From positions 1 to 42,554 of the forward strand of contig CADBNR010000017.1 of the NCBI GenBank assembly GCA_902796035.1: a DNA stretch of 42,554 bases, read 5' to 3'. The notes below the pieces were generated by a model. That model was not told where the DNA came from. It saw nothing but the letters and a program-made list of their open reading frames with translations, and made no database searches. The first letter of the stretch is position 1. Each line of letters begins with the position of its first letter. Both the position numbers and the translations under genes were made by a program. Below are positions 13,019 through 27,352 of the stretch, piece after piece. The stretch comes from an uncultured Bacteroidales bacterium. Its GTDB lineage: Bacteria; Bacteroidota; Bacteroidia; Bacteroidales; Muribaculaceae.

Positions 13019-15439
13019 ATGGAAAATACATATATCGAAGACCGCTCTGACTATCAGAAAAAAGAAAGAGGCATTAACCTGAAACAATTCCTGTTCCTGT
13101 GTCTGTACAACTGGAAATGGTTCGTGATATCCGTCATCATCTGCCTCGGACTGGCATTCCTGTATATAAAGCACACAGCGCCGACATATACGCGCAATGC
13201 GCTGGTGATGATACGCACCGATGAAAAGGGGACTTCCATGTCGGCCAATTCGGCCATGCTTCAGGACTTGGGCATCAACAACGGCAACTCGCCAGTAGAT
13301 AACGAGATTGCCATCATAGGCAGTCCCGACCTGATGCGTGATGTGGTAAGGCGACTCAGACTTAACATCTCCTATTCCACGCGCAAGGGCATCCGCACCG
13401 AGGACCTGTACGGATCCACGCTGCCCGTCACCGTCACGATGCCGGACATCCCCGAAGAGGACAACGCCTCGTTCAAGCTCCACCTGCAATCTAACGGAGA
13501 TTTCACCATCACCGACCTGAAGCTAAAAAAGAAGACTTTCGAACGTGCTCCCATCCATGGACGTCTCGGCGTGCCTGTCAGCACCCCGCTGGGCAGAATT
13601 ACAGTTAATCCGGCAAAAGGATTCGAAAAGATGGCCCGGGATTCAAAAATAGACATCAACGTAAGCCGCGTTTCCGTGCGTGCCGCCGCTAAAAATTATT
13701 CGGCATCTCTGAAATCCACCGTCGACAAGAAAATGTGGAATGTGGTGGAACTTACATGGACCGGGCCGTCCATCGAAAAAGCCACGGATATATTGAACAC
13801 CCTGATTGCCTCGTATAACGACACTTGGATGCTTGACAAGCGCGAGATGGCCAATTCGTCAAGCGACTTCATCGACGAGCGTATCCAGGTGCTTCAGAAA
13901 GAACTGGGCAATGTAGACCACGACATCTCTCAGTTCAAGAGCAACAACATGCTTCCCGACGTAACCGCAGCGGCGCAGCTGTATATGACACAGGCCAGCA
14001 AAGGCGAAGAAGACCTGAAGCAGCTTGAGAACCAAGCATATATGCTACGCTATGTGCGCAACTCGCTGCGTGACAACAAAAACGGTTACAAGCCTCTTCC
14101 CTCCAGCCTGGGCGTTATGGATGCTCCGGCACTGACCCAGCAGCTGGTGCAGTACAACACCCGTGTAAGCGAACGCAACTCACTGGCAAGCCAAAGCTCG
14201 GAAAACAATCCTCTGCTCACCACTATGGACGCGGAACTCGATGCTTCGCGCCATGCCTTGCTCGTCACCATGGACAATGAAATTGCCGCCATTCAAGAGC
14301 AGATAAAGACTCAGCAGAACCTGATGGGTCACGCAAGATCGCAGATCGCCTCAAACCCCAATCAGGCACGATATCTGCTCAGCGTGGAACGCCAGCAGAA
14401 AGTTAAGGAAGAACTCTATCTCTTCCTGTTGCAGAAGCGTGAGGAAAATCAGCTGAACCAGGCCATCTCATCGTCCAACACCCGCATGATACGCACCACC
14501 GACGGTCCCGACACGCCGGTTGCCCCCCGCAAGGCCATTATCCTGCTGCTGGCTCTGGTGTTCGGTATCGCAATCCCCGGAGGCATACTCTATCTAAAGG
14601 AGGCGAACGTGAGCGTGGTGCGCAACCGCAAGGACATTTCCGGTCTGACCATACCGTTCGCCGGAGAGCTGCCCTTCGACGGCAAAGCCAAGAAATCATT
14701 TTCATCGGCCGGCCGACATAAAGAAATGGCCGTGGTGGCCGTCAAGGCCAACTCCCGCAACGTCATAAACGAGGCCTTCCGCGTGATACGCACCAATCTG
14801 GAATTCATGCGCGGGCGTGACACAAAACCGCAGGTCGTCATGGTGACATCCGCATCATCCGGATCGGGAAAGACTTATATCACCTTTAATCTGGCCAAGT
14901 CATTCTCGATCAAGGACAAGAAGGTACTGGTCATAGACATGGACCTGCGCAAGGCTTCGCTCAGCAAATACGGCGACAGGCACAATTATGGCATCGCCGA
15001 TTACCTGGCCGACCGCATCCAGAACATCAACGACGTGATTCAGCCGGTGCAGGACGCCCAGGGTATGTTCCTGATTCCTGTCGGCACCATGCCTCCCAAC
15101 CCCACCGAGTTGCTGTTCAGCGACAAACTTCCCGGACTGCTCGACCAGCTTCGTCAGGAATACGATTATGTGTTTATCGACTGTCCTCCGGTGGAAGTCG
15201 TGGCCGACTCTTCGATCATCGCAAGCCATGCAGACAGCACCATCTTCGTGGTGCGCGCCGGTCTGTTCCCGCTCGACATGCTCGACATGCTCGAGGGTTA
15301 CTACAAGGACAACAAATTCCCGAATCTGTCGATCATACTTAACGGAACGATATATTCGGAAGGCAGCGTAGTGGGGCATTACGGCAACGGCTTCGGCACA
15401 TACGGCTACGGAATCCAGTATAAATACGGCAAAGACTGA
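13019..15439 (+). CDS. Polysaccharide co-polymerase / tyrosine autokinase (Wzc-like)
   Basis: This 806-residue inner-membrane protein combines a Wzz chain-length domain with a cytoplasmic BY-kinase domain. The first membrane helix is at about residues 36-52 ([17 protein letters not shown]) and the second at about 504-524. Between them lies a long periplasmic coiled-coil region. The kinase has Walker A ASSGSGKT (residues 612-619, Lys618), Walker A' [13 protein letters not shown] and Walker B VFIDCPP. The C-terminal tail carries five tyrosines within about 20 residues ([20 protein letters not shown]), the usual autophosphorylation cluster. It works with the upstream export lipoprotein to control polymer length and secretion. 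Confidence 0.94.
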
Positions 15440-15464
15440 TAACCCAACAAACACGAAATCGGAT

Positions 15465-16370
15465 ATGAAAGGCATTGTATTGGCCGGCGGCTCCGGCACG
15501 CGACTTTACCCCATCACCAAGGGAGTGAGCAAACAGATGTTGCCTGTCTATGACAAGCCAATGATCTACTATCCGATATCAACGCTGATGCTGGCAGGCA
15601 TCCGCGAGATATTGATTATCTCCACCCCCGACGATCTTCCGGGCTTCCGCCGGCTGTTGGGCGACGGCTCCGACTACGGCGTACGGTTTGAATATGCCGA
15701 ACAACCCAGTCCCGACGGTCTGGCTCAGGCTTTCATCATAGGGCGCGACTTCATAGGCGATGATTCCGTCTGTCTGGTACTGGGCGACAACATCTTCCAT
15801 GGAGCCGGCTTCGCCCAGATACTGCGTCAGGCAGTGAACGAACTCGAGTCCAACGGCAAGGCTTCCGTGTTCGGATACCGTGTGGAGGATCCGGAGCGTT
15901 ACGGTGTCGCCGAGTTCGACGCGAAGGGCAATTGCCTGTCCATCGAGGAGAAACCGGCCAAGCCAAAATCCAATTACGCGGTCGTAGGACTCTACTTCTA
16001 TCCCAACTCCGTGGTGGACGTGGCCGCCGCCATCAAGCCATCGGCACGCGGCGAGCTGGAAATAACATCGGTCAATCAGCATTATCTGGCCGAAGGGCTG
16101 CTGCGTGTCGGCATCCTGCCCCGTGGATTCGCATGGCTCGACACCGGAACGCACGACTCGCTGGCAGACGCCTCCATTTATGTGGAAGTGCTGGAAAAAC
16201 GCCAGGGCCGCAAGATAGGTTGCCTGGAGGGCATCGCTTTCCACAAAGGCTGGATATCTAAAGAAAAAATGACCGAACTCGCCAAACCTCTCATGAAAAA
16301 TGAATACGGTCGATACCTGATGAGTCTGGTGAACGAGACCGAGACCGACACATACAATTCCTTCGAATAA
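15465..16370 (+). CDS. rmlA: Glucose-1-phosphate thymidylyltransferase
   Basis: This 301-residue enzyme makes dTDP-glucose from glucose-1-phosphate and dTTP, the first step towards dTDP-L-rhamnose and related deoxy sugars. The nucleotidyltransferase signature [20 protein letters not shown] lies at residues 8-27 and is followed by [10 protein letters not shown]. Other matching blocks are [24 protein letters not shown] and [14 protein letters not shown]. The length fits the short RmlA form. It begins 25 bp after the kinase gene and is followed after 30 bp by rmlC. rmlB and rmlD are not in the window, so the pathway must be completed elsewhere. Confidence 0.96.
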
Positions 16371-16400
16371 CATCATATCGCGAATCACAACCTGACGGGC

Positions 16401-16949
16401 ATGAAACTGATAGAAACAGACATATCGGGCGTATACATTCTGGAGCCACGCATTTTTAAGGATGCGAGGGGTTATTTCTTCGAATCGTACAACAAGGAGA
16501 CCTTCGACAGACTGATCGGCCCGGTTGACTTCGTCCAGGACAACGAATCAAGTTCCGTACGCGGCGTGATGCGCGGACTTCACTTCCAGGCACCTCCGCA
16601 CGCCCAGGCCAAGCTGGTGCGCTGCATCCGCGGCGAGGTACTTGACGTGGCGGTCGATATCCGGAAGGACTCTCCTACTTACGGCCGCCATGTCAGCGTG
16701 ATTCTATCCGAAAGCAATCACCGACAGTTCTTTATTCCCCGTGGTTTCGCTCACGGATTCGCCGTGCTCAGCGACACCGCCGTATTTCAATATAAGTGCG
16801 ACAACCTGTATTGCCCCGAGGCGGAAGGTGGAATATCCATCGCCGACCCGGAACTCGGCATAGACTGGACCATAGAGCCGGCGGAAGCGATCCTGTCGGA
16901 CAAGGATACACGACACCCGCTGTTCCGCGACTTCAAGTCGCCGTTCTGA
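16401..16949 (+). CDS. rmlC: dTDP-4-dehydrorhamnose 3,5-epimerase
   Basis: This 182-residue cupin enzyme epimerises dTDP-4-keto-6-deoxyglucose at C3 and C5 on the route to dTDP-L-rhamnose. It carries the family motifs FFESYNKETF, VRGVMRGLHFQAPPHAQAK (with the catalytic His), EVLDVAVDIRKDSPTYG and FIPRGFAHGFAVLS. The length is normal. It is the last gene of the export operon; after its stop comes a short CT-rich repeat rather than a recognisable terminator, so some read-through to 17143 is possible. Confidence 0.96.
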   Translation: MKLIETDISGVYILEPRIFKDARGYFFESYNKETFDRLIGPVDFVQDNESSSVRGVMRGLHFQAPPHAQAKLVRCIRGEVLDVAVDIRKDSPTYGRHVSVILSESNHRQFFIPRGFAHGFAVLSDTAVFQYKCDNLYCPEAEGGISIADPELGIDWTIEPAEAILSDKDTRHPLFRDFKSPF

Positions 16950-16981
16950 CATTTCACCTTCCGCGACAGATACCCATCACT

Positions 16982-17035
16982 ACTCCCGCCACTCCCGCCA
17001 CTCCCACTACTCCCACTACTCCCACTACTCCCACT
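16982..17035 (+). repeat. 9-bp tandem repeat, six copies
   Basis: Six units of ACTCCC(GCC/ACT) run without gaps: two with GCC and four with ACT. The array starts 32 bp after the rmlC stop. On the minus strand it creates a Gly/Ser-rich open frame, which I treat as an artefact of the repeat. Confidence 0.95.
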
Positions 17036-17046
17036 CATCCCTCCCA

Positions 17047-17078
17047 TTTGTTTTTTACGCATTTTTTTCGTAATTTTG
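17047..17078 (+). promoter_or_regulatory. Promoter of the amidase-TamL operon
   Basis: TTTG at 17047-17050 and TAATTTTG at 17071-17078 are separated by exactly 20 bp. The leader to the ATG at 17143 would be about 60 nt. The -33 element sits directly after the CT-rich tandem repeat. Confidence 0.75.
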
Positions 17079-17142: not shown

Positions 17143-20100
17143 ATGCGTCTTAAACATATTATTTACATACTTATCTGCGGCTTGCTTTACTTCGGGGCTG
17201 CCGAATCGTTCCAGGCATACGCCGAACCGGCAGCGAAAAGTGCGAGTGCAAAGAGCAAAAAGAATTCAAAAAGCTCTAAAAGTTCAAAAAGCAGAAAAAG
17301 CTCGAAAAGCAGAAAATCAACGAGCCGTAAGTCAGGTGAAAAATCGACTTCAAAAAAATCCCGTTATAATAAATCCAAAAAGAGCAGCCGTTCCAAAAAG
17401 AAATCATCATCGAGGAGCAAGAGCCGTCGCGGACGCAATGCTGTAAAGACAAAATACACGGCACCTCCCAAGGAGACGCCTCAGAACGACTCGCTGACGC
17501 TGGCCGTGAACTCGGCCCTGATAGAACGCATTCCGTCGCATCTGAATCCCGGCGGTCTGCGCGTCAACAGCGTGCGACCCAACCATTCCTCTCGTCTGGC
17601 CAATGTGTCGCTCAACGAGAATTTCACATATCTGCCCGTTACCAAGGGCCTGATTGACACGCTGCAGAACGATGTGCGCGCCGTGCTCCCCGACTCACTG
17701 TCCGACTACAGGGTGCTGCTCACCGTCGGAGGCAAATCTCTGTCATACTACATAACCAAGGTGGACAAGCTGCCGCCGGAACACCGCAAGAATCCGGCAT
17801 TCGTCACCGAGGTCAATCCCGTATCGTCCACCGCCAAGGGTATGGACAACGACATCGTGGCTCTGTGGCACAGCCACGGCCGTTACTACAAGAACGGCGG
17901 CTGGCAATGGCAGCGCCCTCTGCTGTTCCAGACGGTGGAGGACACATACACCATGAGCTATATCCTCCCCTATGTGGTGCCGATGCTCGAAAACGCCGGC
18001 GCGTACGTATTCCTGCCGCGCGAACGCGACACCAATCCCAACGAGGTGATTGTGGACAACGACACCAATCCCGATGGGAAGGTTTATTCCCAGTCCACCT
18101 ATCGCGAGAACAACGGCGCCCAGCAATGGGCCACCGGCGAGCAGGAAGGCTTTATCTACGACCTGCCCGATTTCCGCGACACCGAGAATCCGTTCGAGAA
18201 CGGCACCTACCGCCAGGTGCCGACCGTGGCCGGAGGCAACACGTCGGCCGCGGCATGGTACGCCGACATCCCCGAGGATGGTGAATATGCCGTTTACGTC
18301 AGCTACAAGACTCTCCCTAACTCCACCACCGACGCACACTATTCCGTCAATTATTCCGGAGGCACCAAGGAATTCCGCGTAAATCAGAAGATGGGTGGCG
18401 GCACATGGATATACCTATGCACCGTACCCCTTGAGAAAGGGTACAGCGACACCGAAGCCATCGTGACACTGACCAACGACACCAAGGGCGCGCCGGGCAC
18501 CATTCTTACCGCCGACGCCGTCAAGATTGGCGGAGGCATGGGCAACATAGCCCGGTCGCCGCGCCGCAGCGACGTATATTACGACCCTTCTACCCCTGAC
18601 ACCGCCGACGAAGAATCGGCCGATGAAGAGGAGTATGAAGAAGACGACGAAGAAGAATCGGAGACAACCGACGAGACCACGGAAAATGCGGAAAATTCCG
18701 AGACCCCCGACAGTCCCGATACCGAAATCGCACAGACAAAACCAGCTGAGAACCACACCCCCAAGGGTGCCGCACCAAGCTTCCGCACCTCGGGTTATCC
18801 CCGATTCCTGGAGGGTGCCCGTTACTGGCTGCACTGGGCCGGTTTCCCGGAATATGTGTATTCCCCCTATCACGGTGCCGACGACTATAAGGACGACTAC
18901 ACGTCGCGCGGTCACTGGGTGAACTATCTGGCAGGAGGATCGCGCGTGCTTCCCGGACGCGAGGGCCTGAACCTCCCCGTGGACCTGGCTTTCGCACTTC
19001 ATTCCGATGCCGGCAAGCGTGCCGACGATTCATTTGTAGGCACATTGGGAATCTACTTCACCCAGAACGGCGCCACATACACCGACGGCACGCCGCGCAT
19101 CAATTCGCGAATGCTCACCGACATGGTGATGCAGCAGATCTCCAAAGATGTGCGCCGCGAATGGGAACCCCGCTGGACACGCCGCTCCATGTGGGACAAG
19201 TCGTATGTCGAGGCTCGTGTGCCCGAAGTGCCCACTACGTTGATAGAGCTGATGAGTCATCAGAACTTCGCCGACATGCAGTATGGTCTCGATCCCGAAT
19301 TCCGTTTCACCGTAGGCCGCGCCATATACAAGGGTATCGCGCGCTTCCTGGCCCAGCGCAAGGACCGCGAGCTGGTGATACAACCCCTCCCCGTCAAGGA
19401 TTTCAGAATCAAGCGTACCAAAAAGAACCATTACCGCCTCAGCTGGGAACCCACTCCCGACGAACTGGAACCTACGGCGATGCCCACGAAGTATGTCATA
19501 ATGGAACGTTCGGGCGACGACTTAGGCTTCCACAAGATAGGCGAGACCAAAGACACCCACTTCGACCTGCGCGTAGCCGACCATGACATCCACTCGTTCT
19601 ATGTCATAGCAGCCAACGAGGGAGGCGCCGCCTTCCCGAGCGAGACTCTGGCACTGCGCGAGGCTCCCGATGCGTCACAGCCCGTGCTTGTGGTGAACGG
19701 ATTCGACCGTGTGTCCGCTCCCGGCTCGTTCTCGGAGAACGGTCGCGCCGGATTCGACAGCGAGAACGATTTCGGCGTGCCTTACATCAAAGATATATCC
19801 TTCACCGGCTATCAGACCGAGTTCCGCCGCAACGCCGGCGAAAGCTTCGGCCGCAGCGGTTCGAACTACGTGACGCAGGTGATAGCCGGCAACACGTTCG
19901 ACTATCCCGCCACGCACGGTGCCGCGATAGCACATGCCGGCAAGGGATTCGTGTCGGCCAGCGCATCGTCCGTACAGAACGGCGAGGTCAAGCTGCAGGA
20001 CTATCCCATGGTCGATGTGATTCTGGGCAAACAGAAATCGACCGTAACGGGCCATTCAAACAAGGGAGTGCGCTACAAGGTGGTACCCGGCGAGATGCAG

Positions 20101-20556
20101 AAGAAGCTCCGCCAGTATTCCGACAAGGGTGGACGCCTGATGCTGAGCGGCGAGTTCATCAGTTCCGACCTGCAGGGCCGTCGCGCGGACCGCAACGACC
20201 GCGAGTTCCTGGAGGAAGTGCTGGGGCTGCAGACCACACCCGACTCCGTGGCGCACCCCACTATGCCGGCCGCCTCCTCGCAGTCGGGCCGTCTGCGAGA
20301 CTCCCGGGGAAACAGCCTGCCTTATTCCTCGACGCTGAACGAGAACATGTATATCGTGGAGAATCCCGACATACTCACCCCCGCCGACGACGACACCGAA
20401 ACCCTGCTGACATTCACTAACGGCGGCGTGGCCGGCCTGCGCCACGACCGCGGACGCGGCAGGGTGTTCGTATTCTCCGTGCCTTTCGAGGCCATTACCG
20501 ATGCCACGGCCCGCGACCGCATCATGAAACAAGTAATAGATTCCATTAAGAAATGA
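17143..20556 (+). CDS. Large periplasmic amidase-like protein with golvesin insert
   Basis: This 1137-residue secreted protein has a signal peptide (1-27, ending AYA) and a Ser/Lys/Arg low-complexity linker (about 30-100). An N-acetylmuramoyl-L-alanine amidase (Amidase_3-like) domain appears split. Its first half has [11 protein letters not shown] (His243 and His245); its second half has FALHSDAG (His620) and [14 protein letters not shown] (Glu702), placed like zinc ligands and catalytic Glu. Between them lie a golvesin-like beta domain (about 365-470) and a very acidic spacer (about 485-545). A fibronectin type III domain (about 745-845) and a C-terminal alpha/beta domain of about 290 residues (from [11 protein letters not shown]) follow. 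Relatives are often labelled xanthan lyase, which the sequence does not support. It is the first gene of the operon. Confidence 0.8.
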
Positions 20557-22040
20557 ACATATTGAGATTCACCACCGTCAATGCCTTGCGCGAACACATA
20601 TTCCGCTCAGGTCTGGAGCAATACGTGCTGTTGCAACTTGACGACAAGAAGATAGACATCTCCCCCGCCGACATACGGAGAATGCAGGAAACGGCATCGG
20701 AAATAGACTCCACGCTGACCTACAGTTACTTCCGCGAGGTACTTCCGGACGGATCGCTCGAGAACCATCCGGTAATAGATTATCAGCCCGGTTCGGTGCG
20801 CGACTCGTTCGACTTCGGCTCGCTGGTGCTTCTTAACGCTGCCGATATACTGGCCGCCACCGAGGATTTCACCGACAAGGAATCGTCGATGATGGACGGA
20901 GGCTGGTACGCGCTGCGCCTGCGCGTCACTATGGGCAAGATGGTGGTGATGATTCCTGAATACCTCTATACCGTTCAGAAGGTAGACTTCCGCGACTCCG
21001 GACAGAAACAGCACGATTATGTCAATCCGCGCAACAGAGCCTATCAGGTGGAGATGGAACAGGTGCTGACCGAATACCTCGGTGATATCCGCGCGTTGGT
21101 CAACAATCAGCATGAGCCGATAGACTATGACGCCGAGGCGTTCGACTGCGAGGCGTCGGTGATAATACCTGTGCGCAACCGCGTGGCCACCATAGCCGAC
21201 GCCGTACGCTCCGCACTGAGCCAGCGCACCGATTTTCCGTACAACGTCATCGTGGTGGACAACGACTCTACCGACGGCACTCGCCAGTTGCTGGAATCCA
21301 TATCCGATCCGCGCCTGATACTCCTCAGGCCCGGAGCAGACGACGGCCTGGGCATCGGCGGTTGCTGGAACCTGGCCCTCAACGACAGCCGGTGCGGGCG
21401 GTTTGCCGTGCAGCTCGACTCGGACGATAAATATATTGACAACAACACACTGCAGACCATCGTCAACAAATTCCGCAGCGGCAACTACGGAATGGTGATA
21501 GGCAGCTACACCATGACCGACCGGGAATGGAATGTAATTCCTCCGGGCGTAATCACACACGACGAATGGTCGGACGCCAACGGTGCCAACAATGGACTTC
21601 GCATCAACGGCTTCGGCGCCCCCCGAGCCTATTTCACGCCTTTGGCGCGCAGGTTTCCATTCCCGAACGTGTCTTACGGCGAGGACTATGCGATGGTGTT
21701 ACGCATCAGCAGGTCATACGCGATAGGCAGGATTTTTCATTCGCTTTATATGTGCCGCCGATGGGAAGGCAATTCCGATGCGAGACTCTCGATAGAGAAG
21801 AGCAACGCCAACGACACGTACAAGGATTTCCTGCGGTCGGTCGAGCTGATGGCACGTGTACGTGAGAACGTGTCGGACGAATCAGGACGACGTGGCGACT
21901 GGCAGCTGTTGGGTTCGATACCCGGCGGACCGATAGGCGATGAATTCTGGAACAACATCCAGGACTATATCGACGGCGACGATGACGATGACGACGATAA
22001 CCTATTAGACGATGACGATGACGATGACGACAACATCTGA
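20553..22040 (+). CDS. Family 2 glycosyltransferase with acidic tail
   Basis: This 495-residue cytoplasmic protein has a GT-A fold glycosyltransferase domain from about residue 201: [30 protein letters not shown], then the metal-binding motif [11 protein letters not shown]. Residues 1-190 resemble the second half of a GT-A domain ([35 protein letters not shown]) without the nucleotide-binding half, so the protein may be a degenerate tandem. The C-terminal 20 residues are almost all aspartate. Its ATG overlaps the previous stop (ATGA), and its last 29 bp overlap the next gene. Donor and acceptor are unknown. Confidence 0.85.
21980..22033 (+). repeat. GAC/GAT repeat coding for poly-Asp and start codons
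   Basis: Two blocks of GATGAC-type hexamers flank a short CTATTA spacer. In the glycosyltransferase frame they encode aspartate runs; in another frame they supply ATG codons at 21982, 21988, 22012, 22018 and 22024. The first two open an 8-codon frame that stops at TAG (22006), directly before the starts of the next gene. Confidence 0.85.
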
Positions 22041-22995
22041 CACAAAATCCCTCCGCCCCTCGCCGCTGAACTTAGAGACCATCAACCTGTTGGTTGAGCA
22101 TCAGCTGGGCGAATGGCCCGATGCCGCGGTCCGTTACCATGACCTGGGCAGAACACAACGCAAGCCGCTGGACATAGGCGACCTTCCATTCGCCTTGCAG
22201 CTTAACCCGGCGCGCATGGTGTCCACAGCCGCCGACACGTCAACGGAGGCCATAGCCAGCCGCCCCTGCTTCCTCTGCGCCGACAACAGGCCCAAGGAGC
22301 AGATGTGTGCCGAGTGGATGCCTGGCTGGGACCTCTGCGTCAACCCCTTCCCCATCCTGCCGATTCACTTCACGATAATATCGCGCGAGCACCGTCCGCA
22401 GGACCGCCCTCCGTTCGAGATGGCGGCCATGGCCGAGGCGGCCCCCGATCTGGTAATATTCTTCAACGGAGCCGCCGCCGGTGCCTCCGCGCCCGACCAC
22501 CTGCATACGCAGGGCGTCCTGAAGTCCGAGTTGCCAATGCTCGCGCTGGCCGAGAAACATCATCCCTCCGACCGTACCGGATTCCTCAGTTCCGAATCGT
22601 TCGGGCTGAACCTCCCCTTCCACTTCGTCAGCGCCGTAATCACGCCCGACCGCCAGGGAGCAATGATGCTACGCGCCATCGCTTCGGCTTTCGGCATCGA
22701 TACCGACGGCAACGTGAATCCGGGCCTGATCAACGTATTCTACTGGATGGGCGACGACGGTATGCTTCGCGCAGTGGTCGTGCCGCGTCTCAGCCACCGG
22801 CCGCATCATTACTTAGATGACGAACCTGACAGAATCGTGGTGGGTCCCGGTGCCATAGACATGGCCGGTCTGATGATAACGCCCCGTCCACAGGATTTCG
22901 AGCGCCTTGACGCCCGCCTTGTCAGGGAAATATACAACGAGGTCGCTTTCGCCGACAGGCTCCCGGAACCCGTCAGACAACATTTCGCTTTATGA
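22012..22995 (+). CDS. DUF4922 protein, HIT/GalT-like nucleotidyltransferase or phosphorylase
   Basis: This protein of up to 327 residues shows the GalT/Apa-type histidine motif H163-L-H165-T-Q167 in [18 protein letters not shown]. The HxHxQ form is that of nucleotidyl transferases and phosphorylases (galactose-1-P uridylyltransferase, Ap4A phosphorylase, GDP-hexose phosphorylases) rather than HIT hydrolases. A CxxC pair (CFLC, residues 86-89) and [17 protein letters not shown] fit the same superfamily. Three in-frame ATGs (22012, 22018, 22024) lie in the repeat; 22012 is taken, the others are equally possible. It overlaps both neighbours. Substrate unknown; a sugar nucleotide is the natural guess given the adjacent glycosyltransferase. 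Confidence 0.85.
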
Positions 22996-24308
22996 ATTCC
23001 ACAGCGCGCAGATCGCCCTGGGCATGGATTCCGGCCCTGTATGTGGCCGAGGGAATACCCAGCTTCGTGGTGAACAGCTTCACCGTCATAATCTATACCC
23101 AGATGGGCATAAGCCTGACCGATATGGCGTTCTATACCGGCTGGCTCTACCTCCCCTGGGTCATCAAGCCCTTCTGGAGTCCGTTCGTCGACATATTCAA
23201 GACCAAGCGCGCCTGGATAGTCAGTATGCAGCTGCTGTTGGGCGTGGCCATGGCTGCGGTGGCGTTCATGCTGCCCGCACCTTTCTTCTTCACCGGCACA
23301 CTGGCGGTGTTCTGGATCATGGCGTTCCTGTCGGCCACGCACGACATAGCCGCCGACGGATATTATATGCTGGCCCTCACCCAGCATCAGCAGGCGGCCT
23401 TCGTGGGCGTGCGCAACACCTTCTACCGCCTCGCCTCGCTGTTCGGGCAGGGAGGTCTCGTGATGTGGGCGGGATATATGCAGCAGAAAGGGATGGCCGT
23501 GTCGTCGTCATGGAGCATGGTGTTTGTGGCCCTGTCCGTGCTGTTCCTGTGCATCACGCTGTACGACTGGCTCATACTGCCGCACAGCCCCAACGACAAA
23601 CCGATGCCGGGCGTCACGGCCCGCAGCATCGTGAGGAATTTCTGCATGACGTTCGTAAGTTTCTTCCGGAAGCCACATATCGTTACAGCTCTCTGCTTCA
23701 TGCTTCTGTACCGCCTGCCGGAAGCGCTGTGTCTTAAACTGACCCAGCCTTTCCTGCTGGCGCCCCGTGCCGAAGGCGGGCTGGGCCTCACCACCATCCA
23801 GCTCGGTCTGGTCAATGTGTGGGTGGGCGTGCTGGCTCTGCTGGCCGGCGGCATCCTCGGCGGCGTGGCCATAGCCAAAGGGGGCTTTAAGAAATGGCTC
23901 TGGCCCATGGCGCTGTCGCTGACACTGCCATGTATATTCTATTGTTTCCTGGCCATGTTTCAGCCTCAGAATTTCGTGCTGATATGCATGGCCATCGGAA
24001 TCGAGCAGTTCGGATATGGGTTCGGCTACACCGCGTTCATGATGTATCTGATATACTTCAGCAAGGGACCGAGCGAAACCTCGCACTTCTCGTTCTGCAC
24101 GGCGTTCGCCTTCATGGGACTGATGGTGCCGGGCATGTTGGCGGGCTGGATTCACGACACGCTGAGCCGTTACAGTTTCTTCGGACTCGACGGTCCGCAG
24201 GGATACGTCAATTTCTTCTGGTGGGTAATGATATGCTGCATCGCCACGTTCGCGGTCTGCCTTAAAATCAAAGTAAATCCAAATTTCGGCAAGAAGCAGG
24301 CCGGATGA
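22992..24308 (+). CDS. AmpG-like MFS permease
   Basis: This 438-residue inner-membrane protein has about 12 hydrophobic helices and fits the AmpG branch of the major facilitator superfamily. Matching segments are LYVAEGIPSFVVNSFTVIIY at the first helix, LYLPWVIKPFWSPFVDIFKT and AFLSATHDIAADGYYMLAL, which correspond to the AmpG motifs around helices 2-5. AmpG imports anhydro-muropeptides for cell-wall recycling in Proteobacteria; transport specificity here is inferred only. Its ATG overlaps the DUF4922 stop and its end overlaps the TamL-like start, both as ATGA, so it is translated in a coupled way with both. Confidence 0.85.
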   Translation: MNSTARRSPWAWIPALYVAEGIPSFVVNSFTVIIYTQMGISLTDMAFYTGWLYLPWVIKPFWSPFVDIFKTKRAWIVSMQLLLGVAMAAVAFMLPAPFFFTGTLAVFWIMAFLSATHDIAADGYYMLALTQHQQAAFVGVRNTFYRLASLFGQGGLVMWAGYMQQKGMAVSSSWSMVFVALSVLFLCITLYDWLILPHSPNDKPMPGVTARSIVRNFCMTFVSFFRKPHIVTALCFMLLYRLPEALCLKLTQPFLLAPRAEGGLGLTTIQLGLVNVWVGVLALLAGGILGGVAIAKGGFKKWLWPMALSLTLPCIFYCFLAMFQPQNFVLICMAIGIEQFGYGFGYTAFMMYLIYFSKGPSETSHFSFCTAFAFMGLMVPGMLAGWIHDTLSRYSFFGLDGPQGYVNFFWWVMICCIATFAVCLKIKVNPNFGKKQAG

Positions 24309-26683
24309 CGCTGAACCTTATGACACGGTTACGGGATTGCCTCTTATACTGGCTGTGCGCCGCCACGCTGTGCGGTGCCGCGGCCTTGTTGCAGTCCTGC
24401 TCGTCCACCAAGTTCGTGCCCGCCGGCAGTCTGCTGCTCGACGACGTCAAGGAGGAAGTGAAGGATTCGTCGGAAACGCTGACCAACCGCGAACTGCTGA
24501 CATACGTGCATCAGCGTCCCAACAACCGCTTCCTGAACATCGCCAAGCTTCGTCTCGGAGTGTACAATATGTCGGGACGCGATTCCACTCGATGGTGGAA
24601 CAAGTGGATGCGTCGCCTGGGCGAACCTCCCGTAATATATAATTCCGAAGCATCGGCCAGCGACGAACGCCAGCTGCTGCGAGCCGTAAACAACGCAGGA
24701 TTTCTGGACGCCACAATCGTGACTGACTCATTTCCCGACTATCGCAGGAAGCGGACCAGACTGCTATACTCCATCGAAGCGGGTCTGCCCCATACCATCC
24801 GGAAAATAGAATACTCCTTCCCCAACGACACAATCCGTGAGCTCGTGATGCGTGATTCTCTGTTGTTCCCCGTCGGACCGGGCGAACGGCTTGACCGCGA
24901 TCTGCTGGAACAGCAGCGCGACCTTGTGACACGACGCATGCAGAACAGCGGCTATTGGGCTTTTGGCAAGGAATACGTCACTTTCACGGCAGACACTGCA
25001 GCAGGATCCAAGCTTGTGGACCTGACCATGTTCGTGAGGCCTCCGTCCAAGGACTCGGGACAGCGGGGACTGGACATTACGCGGCATCACCGCTATCTGG
25101 TGCGCAACATTTACTGCATTCCCGACTATAACGGTGCCGACTGCCCCGATCCGCGCGAGTATCAGGCCAAGGACACGGTGCATTACCGGAACGTGACGGT
25201 GCTGTACGGCGACAAGCGCTATCTCAGGCCAAGTGTACTGAACGAAAACTGCTTCTTCACACCCGGACGCCCGTACCGCATCAGCGACCTGGAAAGCACC
25301 TACTCCGCATTCGGACGCCTCTCCATCCTGAAGTTCATCAACATCCGGCTGATGCCCGCAGGCTCCATAGGCACCGACGGGCTGCTGGATGTATACATAC
25401 TGCTGACTCCGGGCAAAAGCCAGTCCATATCTGCGGAAGTGGAGGGCACGAACTCGGAGGGAGACTTCGGCGTGGCCCTGGCCCTGGCATACGCCCACCG
25501 CAACATCGGCAAAGGATCCGAGACGCTGAACCTCAGGGCCCGCGGATCATATCAGGCGTTGAACGGCAACCTCAAGGGATTCATCCACGACCGCTTCATG
25601 GAATACGGCGTGGACGCCTCCGTGGTGTTCCCCAAGTTCAAGATACCGTTCCTGCGCGAAAGCTTCAAGCGCCGCATCAAGGCGTCCACGGAGTTCAATA
25701 TGTCGATCAATTATCAGGAGCGCCCTGAATACACGCGCATCGTGTCGGCCGTGGGCTGGAACTACAAATGGACGTCACGCCGCAATCCGTCGCGCTACGT
25801 CTGGACTCCACTCGATGCGTCGTACGTATACCTGCCGGCCAGCACCAACGACTTCATCGACCAGATAGCGCCCGACAATCCGTTGCTGCGCTATAGTTAC
25901 GAAGACCACTTCATACTGCGCTCGGGCTTCCAGTTCTACCACACCACCAAGCGCCCGGATGTGCCGGGCATACGCCACAAACTGCAGCGCGACATATTGA
26001 CGTTCCGCACCAATGTGGAGATTGCAGGCAACCTGCTGTTTGCCATAAACCGGCTGATCAATCCCAAGCGGCAATTCCACGAGCATCCCTACAAGGTGTT
26101 CGGCATCCGCTATTCGCAGTATGTGAGGGCCGACGGCGACTTCACGTACCTGCACACGTTCGACAGTCGTAACTCGCTGGCCTGTCACGGCGGCTTCGGC
26201 ATCGGGGTGCCTTACGGCAATTCCAGCATCCTGCCGTTCGAGAAGCGATTCTACGGAGGCGGTGCCAACGGAGTGCGCGGCTGGTCGGTGCGTACCCTCG
26301 GACCGGGACGCTACCCTGCTACCAACTCGCAGTCCGACTTCATCCACCAGTGCGGCGACATCAGGCTGAACCTCAGTGTGGAATACCGCGTTAAAATGTT
26401 CTGGGTGGTGGAAGGCGCGCTGTTTGTGGATGCCGGCAACATCTGGACCATACGCAACTATGCCACCCAGCCGGAGGGAGTGTTCAGGTTCGACTCGTTC
26501 TATAAACAGATTGCACTGGCATACGGCGCCGGAATACGTCTGGACTTCAACTACTTCCTGATCCGTTTCGACCTCGGCATGAAAGCGCACAATCCGGCCA
26601 TCAACGCCGAGCCCTGGCCGCTGATACATCCTGAATGGAAACGCGACCGCGCCTTCCACTTCTCTATAGGTTATCCTTTCTGA
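24305..26683 (+). CDS. TamL-like BamA/TamA family outer-membrane lipoprotein
   Basis: This 792-residue protein has a lipoprotein signal with lipobox LLQSC (lipidated Cys32), followed by SSTKFVPAGSLLLDDV, the N-terminal hallmark of Bacteroidetes TamL. Residues 100-380 probably form POTRA-like domains (for example IRKIEYSFPN, RNVTVLYGDKRYLRPSVL, FGRLSILKFINIRLMP). The C-terminal half is a 16-strand barrel of the D15/Omp85 type, with FYGGGANGVRGWSVRTLGPG (the VRGW/F motif) and a terminal Phe. TamL partners TamB to move lipids or proteins to the outer membrane. No tamB is adjacent. Its start overlaps the permease stop. Confidence 0.9.
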   Translation: MTLNLMTRLRDCLLYWLCAATLCGAAALLQSCSSTKFVPAGSLLLDDVKEEVKDSSETLTNRELLTYVHQRPNNRFLNIAKLRLGVYNMSGRDSTRWWNKWMRRLGEPPVIYNSEASASDERQLLRAVNNAGFLDATIVTDSFPDYRRKRTRLLYSIEAGLPHTIRKIEYSFPNDTIRELVMRDSLLFPVGPGERLDRDLLEQQRDLVTRRMQNSGYWAFGKEYVTFTADTAAGSKLVDLTMFVRPPSKDSGQRGLDITRHHRYLVRNIYCIPDYNGADCPDPREYQAKDTVHYRNVTVLYGDKRYLRPSVLNENCFFTPGRPYRISDLESTYSAFGRLSILKFINIRLMPAGSIGTDGLLDVYILLTPGKSQSISAEVEGTNSEGDFGVALALAYAHRNIGKGSETLNLRARGSYQALNGNLKGFIHDRFMEYGVDASVVFPKFKIPFLRESFKRRIKASTEFNMSINYQERPEYTRIVSAVGWNYKWTSRRNPSRYVWTPLDASYVYLPASTNDFIDQIAPDNPLLRYSYEDHFILRSGFQFYHTTKRPDVPGIRHKLQRDILTFRTNVEIAGNLLFAINRLINPKRQFHEHPYKVFGIRYSQYVRADGDFTYLHTFDSRNSLACHGGFGIGVPYGNSSILPFEKRFYGGGANGVRGWSVRTLGPGRYPATNSQSDFIHQCGDIRLNLSVEYRVKMFWVVEGALFVDAGNIWTIRNYATQPEGVFRFDSFYKQIALAYGAGIRLDFNYFLIRFDLGMKAHNPAINAEPWPLIHPEWKRDRAFHFSIGYPF

Positions 26684-26695
26684 ATTGACTACGAT

Positions 26696-27352
26696 ATGAA
26701 AAAATTTGTGATATTCGACCTTGACGGCACATTGCTCAACACCATAGCCGACCTCGGCAACGCCTGTAACCACGCCTTGAAAGAGGCGGGGTTCTCCACC
26801 CATCCCCTGTCGGCCTACAACTATATGGTAGGCAACGGGGTGCGCAAGCTTCTGGAGCGTGCCCAGCCGGACGCCGGCCCGGAGGTGATCGACGCGATGC
26901 TGGCATCGTTCCGCGAGTATTACGACCGGCACTGCACGGACATGACCAAGCCTTATCCGGGCGTTCCGGAGCTTCTGCTCGACCTGCGCGACCGAGACAT
27001 TGCCATAGCCGTGACCAGCAACAAATACCAGAAGGCCGTGGACGCCATCGTCAGGCATTACTTTCCCGACATAGAGTTTGCGACCATACTTGGCGAGGTG
27101 CCGGACCGTCCGAAGAAACCGGACCCCTCCATTGTGTTCCAGGCGCTGAGCGACCATCCGTGTCCGAAGCGCGATGTGCTGTACTGCGGCGACTCGGCGG
27201 TGGATATGGAGACGGCACGCCGCGCCTGCGTGGAGTCGGCAGGCGTGACATGGGGCTTCCGTCCCGTCTCGGAGCTGAAGTCGGCATACGCCGACCACAT
27301 CGTCTCCACCCCCGCGGAAATCCTCGACCTGGCCCTGGCCGTCGACTATTGA
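26696..27352 (+). CDS. HAD-family phosphatase, phosphoglycolate phosphatase-like
   Basis: This 218-residue cytoplasmic hydrolase shows all HAD motifs: nucleophile DLDGTLLNT (Asp8 and Asp10), motif II VTSNK, motif III Lys in RPKKPDPS and motif IV YCGDSAVDMETA. A helical cap lies between residues 16 and 85, the C1-type cap of Gph and beta-phosphoglucomutase. The substrate cannot be set from sequence: phosphoglycolate, a sugar phosphate or a nucleotide are possible. It follows the TamL-like gene after 12 bp and is the last gene of the operon. Its stop lies 4 bp from the convergent P-ATPase stop, leaving no room for a terminator. Confidence 0.88.
   Translation: MKKFVIFDLDGTLLNTIADLGNACNHALKEAGFSTHPLSAYNYMVGNGVRKLLERAQPDAGPEVIDAMLASFREYYDRHCTDMTKPYPGVPELLLDLRDRDIAIAVTSNKYQKAVDAIVRHYFPDIEFATILGEVPDRPKKPDPSIVFQALSDHPCPKRDVLYCGDSAVDMETARRACVESAGVTWGFRPVSELKSAYADHIVSTPAEILDLALAVDY

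What the first reader, a model, noticed from the sequence alone, without database searches (positions are those of the whole stretch)
17143..27352. Coupled six-gene operon joining cell wall, glycan and outer-membrane functions
A single clear promoter precedes a split amidase/golvesin protein, a GT2 enzyme, a DUF4922 HIT-like enzyme, an AmpG-like permease, a TamL-like lipoprotein and a HAD phosphatase. Junctions 1-2, 3-4 and 4-5 are ATGA overlaps, junction 2-3 overlaps by 29 bp and the last gap is 12 bp. Such coupling across outer membrane, periplasm, inner membrane and cytoplasm suggests one pathway. A possible reading: cell-wall or glycan fragments are released by the amidase, imported by the permease and processed by the phosphorylase-like and phosphatase enzymes. 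The role of TamL in it is unclear. I know of no described system with this set.
Basis: partly seen in the sequence, partly recalled or inferred. Interest (0 to 1): 0.7.

Follow-up and report, generated by a model that had tools for sequence, protein, structure and literature searches.

The report
Trimmed Bacteroidales cell-wall-fragment salvage operon
This gene cluster looks like a shortened and rearranged version of a known bacterial operon for taking back fragments of the cell wall, with two further genes attached, and its relatives point to an uncharacterised set of cytoplasmic enzymes at its heart.

The parts
17047..17078 (+). Bacteroidetes-type promoter TTTG-N20-TAATTTTG
   Evidence: 7 sites in the window, 0.14 expected; a strict or relaxed site ahead of the amidase gene in 9 of 17 relatives examined (L107, L109, L110, L111, L112, L113, L114, L072, L073), none in 7, one (L108) begins inside the gene; relaxed pattern without a chance estimate
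17143..20556 (+). Gene 1: N-acetylmuramoyl-L-alanine amidase split by a golvesin domain, with a signal-peptide-like N-terminus, so probably periplasmic
   Evidence: H245, H620, E702 invariant in 20 of 20 homologues and E294 in at least 90%; their roles as zinc ligands and catalytic Glu are recalled
20553..22040 (+). Gene 2: GT2 glycosyltransferase, no export signal, with an extra N-terminal domain and an Asp-rich tail
   Evidence: best Foldseek match chondroitin synthase 2z86, E 7e-18, TM 0.39
22012..22995 (+). Gene 3: DUF4922, Ap4A-phosphorylase-like HIT-superfamily enzyme with intact HxHxQ
22992..24308 (+). Gene 4: AmpG-like MFS permease
   Evidence: TIGR00901, 154.7 bits, below the cut-off 350
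24305..26683 (+). Gene 5: TamL outer-membrane lipoprotein (module 2)
   Evidence: 729.8 bits, cut-off 400; LLQSC lipobox seen in the N-terminus
26696..27352 (+). Gene 6: HAD phosphatase, usual partner of TamL (module 2)
   Evidence: adjacent to TamL in 16 of 20 stretches from relatives

Best explanation
Genes 1-4 are a reduced form of the Bacteroidales peptidoglycan-fragment salvage operon known from Tannerella forsythia. Proposed working: the exported split amidase strips stem peptides from glycan strands or muropeptides in the periplasm; the AmpG-like permease imports the resulting GlcNAc-MurNAc or GlcNAc-anhydroMurNAc sugars; in the cytoplasm a GT2 plus DUF4922 unit (in most Bacteroidales relatives seen joined by, or fused to, a signal-less SpoIID lytic transglycosylase) processes the sugars, the DUF4922 enzyme handling a nucleotide-sugar or nucleotide phosphate bond by phosphorolysis. 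In this lineage SpoIID and the MurNAc arm (NamZ, MurT-like, kinase, MurQ) are not at the locus. TamL-HAD is a separate module that became attached in this genus and its close relatives and probably shares only transcription. Shown here by sequence: families, order, fusions, lack of export signals, predicted fold, catalytic residues. Shown in T. forsythia by others: co-transcription and AmpG function. Inferred: the compartments, the substrate of GT2-DUF4922 and the order of steps.
For: Gene order over fetched loci, all chosen because they carry DUF4922. GT2 directly upstream of or fused to DUF4922: 27 of 36 order-level, 39 of 39 family-level, 75 of 80 named, 14 of 20 phylum-level loci. SpoIID directly downstream or fused: 21/36, 34/39, 63/80, 4/20. 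AmpG-like gene within 3 kb downstream: 25/36, 32/39, 66/80, 4/20. Full operons L075, L076, L081, L101 read kinase-AMI-GT2-DUF-SPO-MFS-NamZ-(about 930-aa gene)-MurT/NagX-like-kinase; a MurQ hit follows on the same contig in G152, G168, G170 (the last just under cut-off). DUF4922 and SpoIID co-occur across 119 family genomes: both 99, neither 12, DUF only 3, SpoIID only 5, Fisher p 2.6e-10, not corrected for shared ancestry. T. forsythia order 'xanthane lyase'-gtf-gtf-lytB-ampG-ybbC-murTKQ, one transcript by RT-PCR (PMC5388701, passages); AmpG there takes both disaccharides (PMC7670621, abstract). Export-signal-like N-termini: amidase 54 of 61, NamZ 34 of 36, SpoIID 1 of 124, DUF4922 1 of 152, GT2 1 of 145; fusions with a membrane-like stretch 0 of 63. 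DUF4922 fold. TamL-HAD as its own unit.
Against: The permease scores below the AmpG cut-off. In other classes of the phylum the GT2-DUF4922 pair is mostly seen without SpoIID or an AmpG-like gene beside it (14 of 20 loci against 4 of 20; an AmpG-like gene anywhere in 6 of 20), so its function need not be wall salvage. In 11 of 36 order-level loci no AmpG-like gene was found, and the amidase is close upstream in only 5 of 36. The module is dispensable: 17 of 119 family genomes lack DUF4922. The window genus keeps GT2-DUF4922 although NamZ (0 of 8) and true MurQ are missing, so the route after import is unclear; AnmK is missing in 12 of 12 genomes tested, full-operon ones included. No T. forsythia sequence was reached, so identity of Tanf_08355 with DUF4922 rests on gene order only. 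TamL-HAD is attached in several relatives (window order in L107, L108, L109, L111; with SpoIID in L110, L113, L114), which may mean more than chance.
Confidence: 0.72

Rival explanations
1. All six genes form one envelope pathway in which TamL helps place the amidase or another outer-membrane protein needed for fragment release, and the HAD enzyme removes phosphate from a recycled sugar (MupP-like).
Against: TamL-HAD is an independent pair in 16 of 20 other stretches; in the genus it also sits between DUF4922 and SpoIID (L067), on the opposite strand (L072), 8-11 kb away (L073, L068) or not near (L071, L074), and in named relatives inverted (L121) or 4 kb off (L123); L108 has a strict promoter site ahead of TamL.
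Confidence: 0.12
2. GT2-DUF4922 is not part of salvage but makes or repairs a nucleotide sugar for a surface glycan; the salvage genes are neighbours through operon packing.
For: The GT2-DUF4922 pair mostly occurs without SpoIID/AmpG beside it in other classes of the phylum; the fold is shared with Ap4A and nucleotide-sugar phosphorylases; the window operon lies downstream of dTDP-sugar genes.
Against: Fusions of DUF4922 with SpoIID (4 of 36, 9 of 39, 48 of 80, 0 of 20 loci) and co-occurrence with SpoIID tie the pair to a wall-glycan enzyme; in L067 a fumarase gene, not sugar genes, precedes the amidase.
Confidence: 0.2
3. The gene order is chance neighbourhood in one genome.
For: The overlaps are not conserved.
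Against: The order of the core recurs across many families and in fusions.
Confidence: 0.02

Closest known systems
Tannerella forsythia AmpG/MurNAc operon Tanf_08345-08385 (PMC5388701, PMC7670621)
   Same: Same order of amidase-like gene (named 'xanthane lyase' there), glycosyltransferase, second 'gtf' (position of DUF4922) and AmpG
   Different: Window lacks lytB/SpoIID, ybbC/NamZ and murTKQ at the locus, and carries TamL-HAD downstream
E. coli AmpG-NagZ-AmpD-AnmK-MurQ recycling (recalled)
   Same: AmpG-type import of wall sugars
   Different: No AnmK or true MurQ found in the window genome; amidase probably exported; GT2 and DUF4922 have no counterpart that I recall
Yeast Ap4A phosphorylase Apa2 and plant GDP-sugar phosphorylases (GGP/VTC2)
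   Different: 13-15% identity to Apa2; CxxC pair invariant here; fused to SpoIID or GT2 in relatives
SpoIID of spore formers (with SpoIIP) and of Chlamydia (recalled; PMC6635528 seen in a listing only)
   Same: SpoIID domain with an amidase gene in the same operon (relatives, not the window)
   Different: Here SpoIID has no export signal and is often fused to cytoplasmic enzymes
TamL of Flavobacterium johnsoniae (PMC12045153, passages)
   Same: TamL lipoprotein, its gene not in an operon with tamB
   Different: Here attached to a salvage operon together with a HAD gene

Membership tests
Bacteroidales AmpG salvage operon (T. forsythia kind) | amidase-GT2-DUF4922-AmpG in this order on one strand | tested here: met
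   equivalence to the Tanf genes by order and names only
Bacteroidales AmpG salvage operon (T. forsythia kind) | SpoIID/LytB gene between DUF4922 and AmpG | tested here: not met
   absent from the locus and not found in the 92% complete genome
Bacteroidales AmpG salvage operon (T. forsythia kind) | NamZ and MurT-MurK-MurQ genes downstream | tested here: not met
   not at the locus; NamZ 0 of 8 genus genomes; in the own genome only weak MurQ-model hits, 36.7 and 18.6 bits
Bacteroidales AmpG salvage operon (T. forsythia kind) | co-transcription and muropeptide uptake | not testable with these tools
   shown for T. forsythia in PMC5388701 and PMC7670621 only
AmpG muropeptide permease (TIGR00901) | score over the curated cut-off | tested here: not met
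   154.7 bits, cut-off 350, though the best NCBIfam match; hence 'AmpG-like'
Amidase_3 | Pfam score over cut-off | tested here: not met
   17.1 bits, cut-off 27, second half only; golvesin insertion splits the domain
Amidase_3 | zinc ligands and catalytic Glu | tested here: met
   H245, H620, E702 in 20 of 20, E294 in at least 90%; roles recalled
DUF4922 (PF16269) | score over cut-off | tested here: met
   157.3 bits, cut-off 23.6
Ap4A phosphorylase-like HIT enzymes | fold and HxHxQ motif | tested here: met
Ap4A phosphorylase-like HIT enzymes | phosphorolytic activity | not testable with these tools
   needs enzyme assay
TamL (NF052279) | score over cut-off and lipobox | tested here: met
   729.8 bits against 400; LLQSC
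MupP / phosphoglycolate phosphatase | score over a specific cut-off | tested here: not met
   125.6 of 225 (PRK13222) and 72 of 359 (MupP) bits

The most novel reading that the evidence does not exclude
In Bacteroidales, imported wall glycan is taken apart in the cytoplasm by one multi-enzyme: a cytoplasmic SpoIID cuts MurNAc-GlcNAc bonds, and GT2 run in reverse with UDP, coupled to phosphorolysis by DUF4922, cuts GlcNAc-MurNAc bonds and keeps the bond energy as UDP-GlcNAc or GlcNAc-1-phosphate. The window lineage would keep only the GT2-DUF4922 half. An inverting GT2 would fit the beta linkage (recalled chemistry).
Probability: 0.08. Interest if true: 0.82.

Novelty: new variant of a known kind. 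Interest (0 to 1): 0.5.

Why it matters
Wall-fragment salvage affects how much peptidoglycan gut and oral Bacteroidales release to the host and to neighbours. In the T. forsythia papers that I saw, two genes of the AmpG operon are called only 'gtf' and its SpoIID only 'amidase enhancer precursor'. The fusions and the lack of export signals suggest that these three act together and in the cytoplasm, which gives a concrete, testable enzyme complex. The window lineage, which keeps GT2-DUF4922-AmpG without the MurNAc genes at the locus, separates the two arms naturally.

Tried and rejected
E. coli sigma-70 and terminator scans gave only chance numbers. A hint at the function of GT2-DUF4922 from neighbours outside Bacteroidales failed: L195 faces a response-regulator/SpoIIE, STAS, sigma-54-activator and histidine-kinase cluster on the other strand, and similarly sized genes lie beside L187, L190, L194, L197, L205. 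The roughly 180-aa insertion in two long AmpG-like proteins gave no Pfam match. Mpl: no score over cut-off in 12 genomes. GH3 (NagZ superfamily) is present in 12 of 12 genomes tested, so a NagZ-type route is not excluded. Chance neighbourhood, and conserved overlaps as evidence for coupling, were rejected. Searches lost DUF4922 in some loci because overlapping ORFs were dropped or the domain rule was too strict; searches use domain coordinates and replace their counts. (a pattern in the own genome) only served to learn the window's place. No paper on a cytoplasmic SpoIID or on the function of bacterial DUF4922 turned up in searches (listings; passages of PMC5388701, PMC7670621, PMC10465942, PMC12045153, PMC9871823, PMC11047344 seen; abstract of PMC7670621); most papers of subscription journals are not held.
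Full report
OBSERVATION. The six ORFs, their strand, overlaps and the 12-bp gap are as stated. One Bacteroidetes consensus promoter, TTTG-N20-TAATTTTG, lies at 17047-17078 (7 such sites in the window, 0.14 expected); no other follows on the + strand before the end of gene 6. In gene 1 a Golvesin_C domain (aa 353-462) lies between conserved residues of the two amidase halves: H245 and E294 before it, H620 and E702 after it; H245, H620 and E702 are invariant in 20 of 20 homologues and E294 in at least 90%. Their roles as zinc ligands and catalytic Glu are recalled.

CONSERVATION. DUF4922 was the anchor. It is found in 37 of 148 order-level genomes, 102 of 119 family-level and 31 of 198 phylum-level (one of them below cut-off), own genome included in each. 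The sets overlap: L110, L117, L124 and L138 have the contig lengths of L070, L074, L068 and L071. Counts, with profiles built here: GT2 directly upstream or fused 27/36, 39/39, 75/80, 14/20; SpoIID directly downstream or fused 21/36, 34/39, 63/80, 4/20; AmpG-like within 3 kb downstream 25/36, 32/39, 66/80, 4/20; amidase within 3 kb upstream 5/36, 28/39, 22/80, 0/20; NamZ anywhere in the locus 13/36, 21/39, 0/80, 2/20; TamL 0/36, 5/39, 10/80, 0/20. Missing neighbours can be due to contig ends or divergent sequences.

The fullest operons read kinase, amidase, GT2, DUF4922, SpoIID, AmpG-like, NamZ, a gene of about 930 aa (an FAD oxidase/4Fe-4S protein in L075, the one scanned), a NagX/MurT-like membrane protein and a BadF-type kinase (L075, L076, L081, L101; labels). 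In G152, G168 and G170 a MurQ hit follows on the same contig, and in L032 a SIS-domain gene is in the cluster.

LITERATURE. In T. forsythia an operon 'xanthane lyase', gtf, gtf, lytB, ampG, ybbC, then murT, murK, murQ is transcribed as one unit and controlled by GppX (PMC5388701, passages); its AmpG takes GlcNAc-anhydroMurNAc and GlcNAc-MurNAc (PMC7670621, abstract). The order matches amidase, GT2, DUF4922, SpoIID, AmpG-like, NamZ. I did not have the Tanf protein sequences, so this match rests on order and names.

TWO MODULES. TamL is in 119 of 119 family genomes, with 1-4 matches each. In 20 stretches around a TamL gene from other genomes (chosen by me; 18 outside the genus, 2 inside; one, L226, a distant TamL), HAD is directly downstream in 15, upstream in 1 and absent in 4, and no amidase, GT2, DUF4922, SpoIID or AmpG-like gene is in the 5.9-7.5 kb fetched. 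The pair is attached behind the permease in L070 of the window's genus (with SpoIID) and in named relatives whose genus I did not check: window order in L107, L108, L109, L111, with SpoIID in L110 (= L070), L113, L114; L112 ends in TamL. In the genus it also lies between DUF4922 and SpoIID (L067), on the opposite strand (L072), 8-11 kb off (L073, L068) or not near (L071, L074); in named relatives inverted (L121) or 4 kb off (L123). L108 has a strict promoter site ahead of TamL. I conclude that TamL-HAD is a separate unit that joined this operon; a shared function is possible but has no support beyond position.

LOSSES. The window has no SpoIID between DUF4922 and the permease, and none was found in its genome (92% complete) or in G247 of the same genus. 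In L107, L108, L109 and L111 the two genes are likewise 5, 29, -8 and 19 bp apart, so the absence is not an artefact of this contig. NamZ is absent in 8 of 8 genus genomes; AnmK in 12 of 12 genomes tested, full-operon ones included, so it is no special loss; only weak MurQ-model hits, or none, occur in the 8 genus genomes; GH3 genes are present in 12 of 12.

CYTOPLASMIC UNIT. GT2-DUF4922, DUF4922-SpoIID and three-part fusions are common: of 80 named loci 44 carry all three in one chain, mostly labelled Prevotella or Prevotellaceae (for example L136 Prevotella micans, L146 Hoylesella marshii, L156 Segatella buccae). By a hydrophobicity measure (not SignalP), signal-like N-termini occur in 54 of 61 amidases and 34 of 36 NamZ but 1 of 124 SpoIID, 1 of 152 DUF4922 and 1 of 145 GT2. 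Counting any membrane-like stretch, 0 of 124 SpoIID, 4 of 152 DUF4922 and 2 of 145 GT2 have one, and 0 of 63 fusions (window, order, family and named sets, overlaps counted twice; not the phylum set). SpoIID keeps an invariant Glu (E120, 30 of 30; catalytic role recalled) and matches solved SpoIID structures (4rwr, E 2.1e-32). A SpoIID acting inside the cell is unexpected; I found no paper on it (searches named under Tried and rejected).

VERDICT. Genes 1-4: reduced variant of a known salvage operon (confidence 0.72 for the explanation as a whole; the gene-order part is much firmer than the chemistry). Genes 5-6: separate module. The most novel reading that is not excluded is a cytoplasmic SpoIID/GT2/DUF4922 machine that recovers nucleotide sugar from imported disaccharide (0.08).

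Noticed in passing
window 16978-17035: A 9-bp CACTACTCC tandem repeat (6.4 copies, 91% match) lies just upstream of the operon promoter.
   Followed up: no
window 21977-22036: GAC/GAT repeat encoding the Asp-rich GT2 tail and, in another frame, the start of DUF4922; the repeat makes the true start uncertain.
   Followed up: partly
L031:10272-12146, L045:6111-7973 and other AmpG-like proteins of about 540-660 aa: Many AmpG-like relatives are about 600-630 aa; in those looked at, an insertion of up to roughly 180 aa sits in the middle, without a Pfam match in the two scanned. Possibly a docking domain.
   Followed up: partly
genus g1 genomes, e.g. G000:C27:9742-10569: All 8 genus genomes have a GH3 gene with an open frame of about 380-445 aa, while the 4 other family genomes tested have one of about 990-1020 aa (G168 also a short one).
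   Followed up: no
L075:15112-17907; L198:5642-8575: An FAD-oxidase/4Fe-4S protein of 931 aa sits between NamZ and the NagX/MurT-like gene in L075 (similar size in many other loci); a related 977-aa protein follows DUF4922 in L198.
   Followed up: partly
L035:3940-5379, L036:8292-9206: A GNAT acetyltransferase with two matched stretches (in L035 also a GDSL hydrolase) takes the place of SpoIID between DUF4922 and the AmpG-like gene.
   Followed up: partly
L037:11939-14112: MurF and a HAD phosphatase follow the AmpG-like gene in one order-level locus.
   Followed up: no
window 13019-16949: A Wzc-like protein (my reading of the sequence), a nucleotidyl transferase of the sugar-nucleotide kind and dTDP-4-dehydrorhamnose 3,5-epimerase lie directly upstream of the operon.
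   Followed up: no
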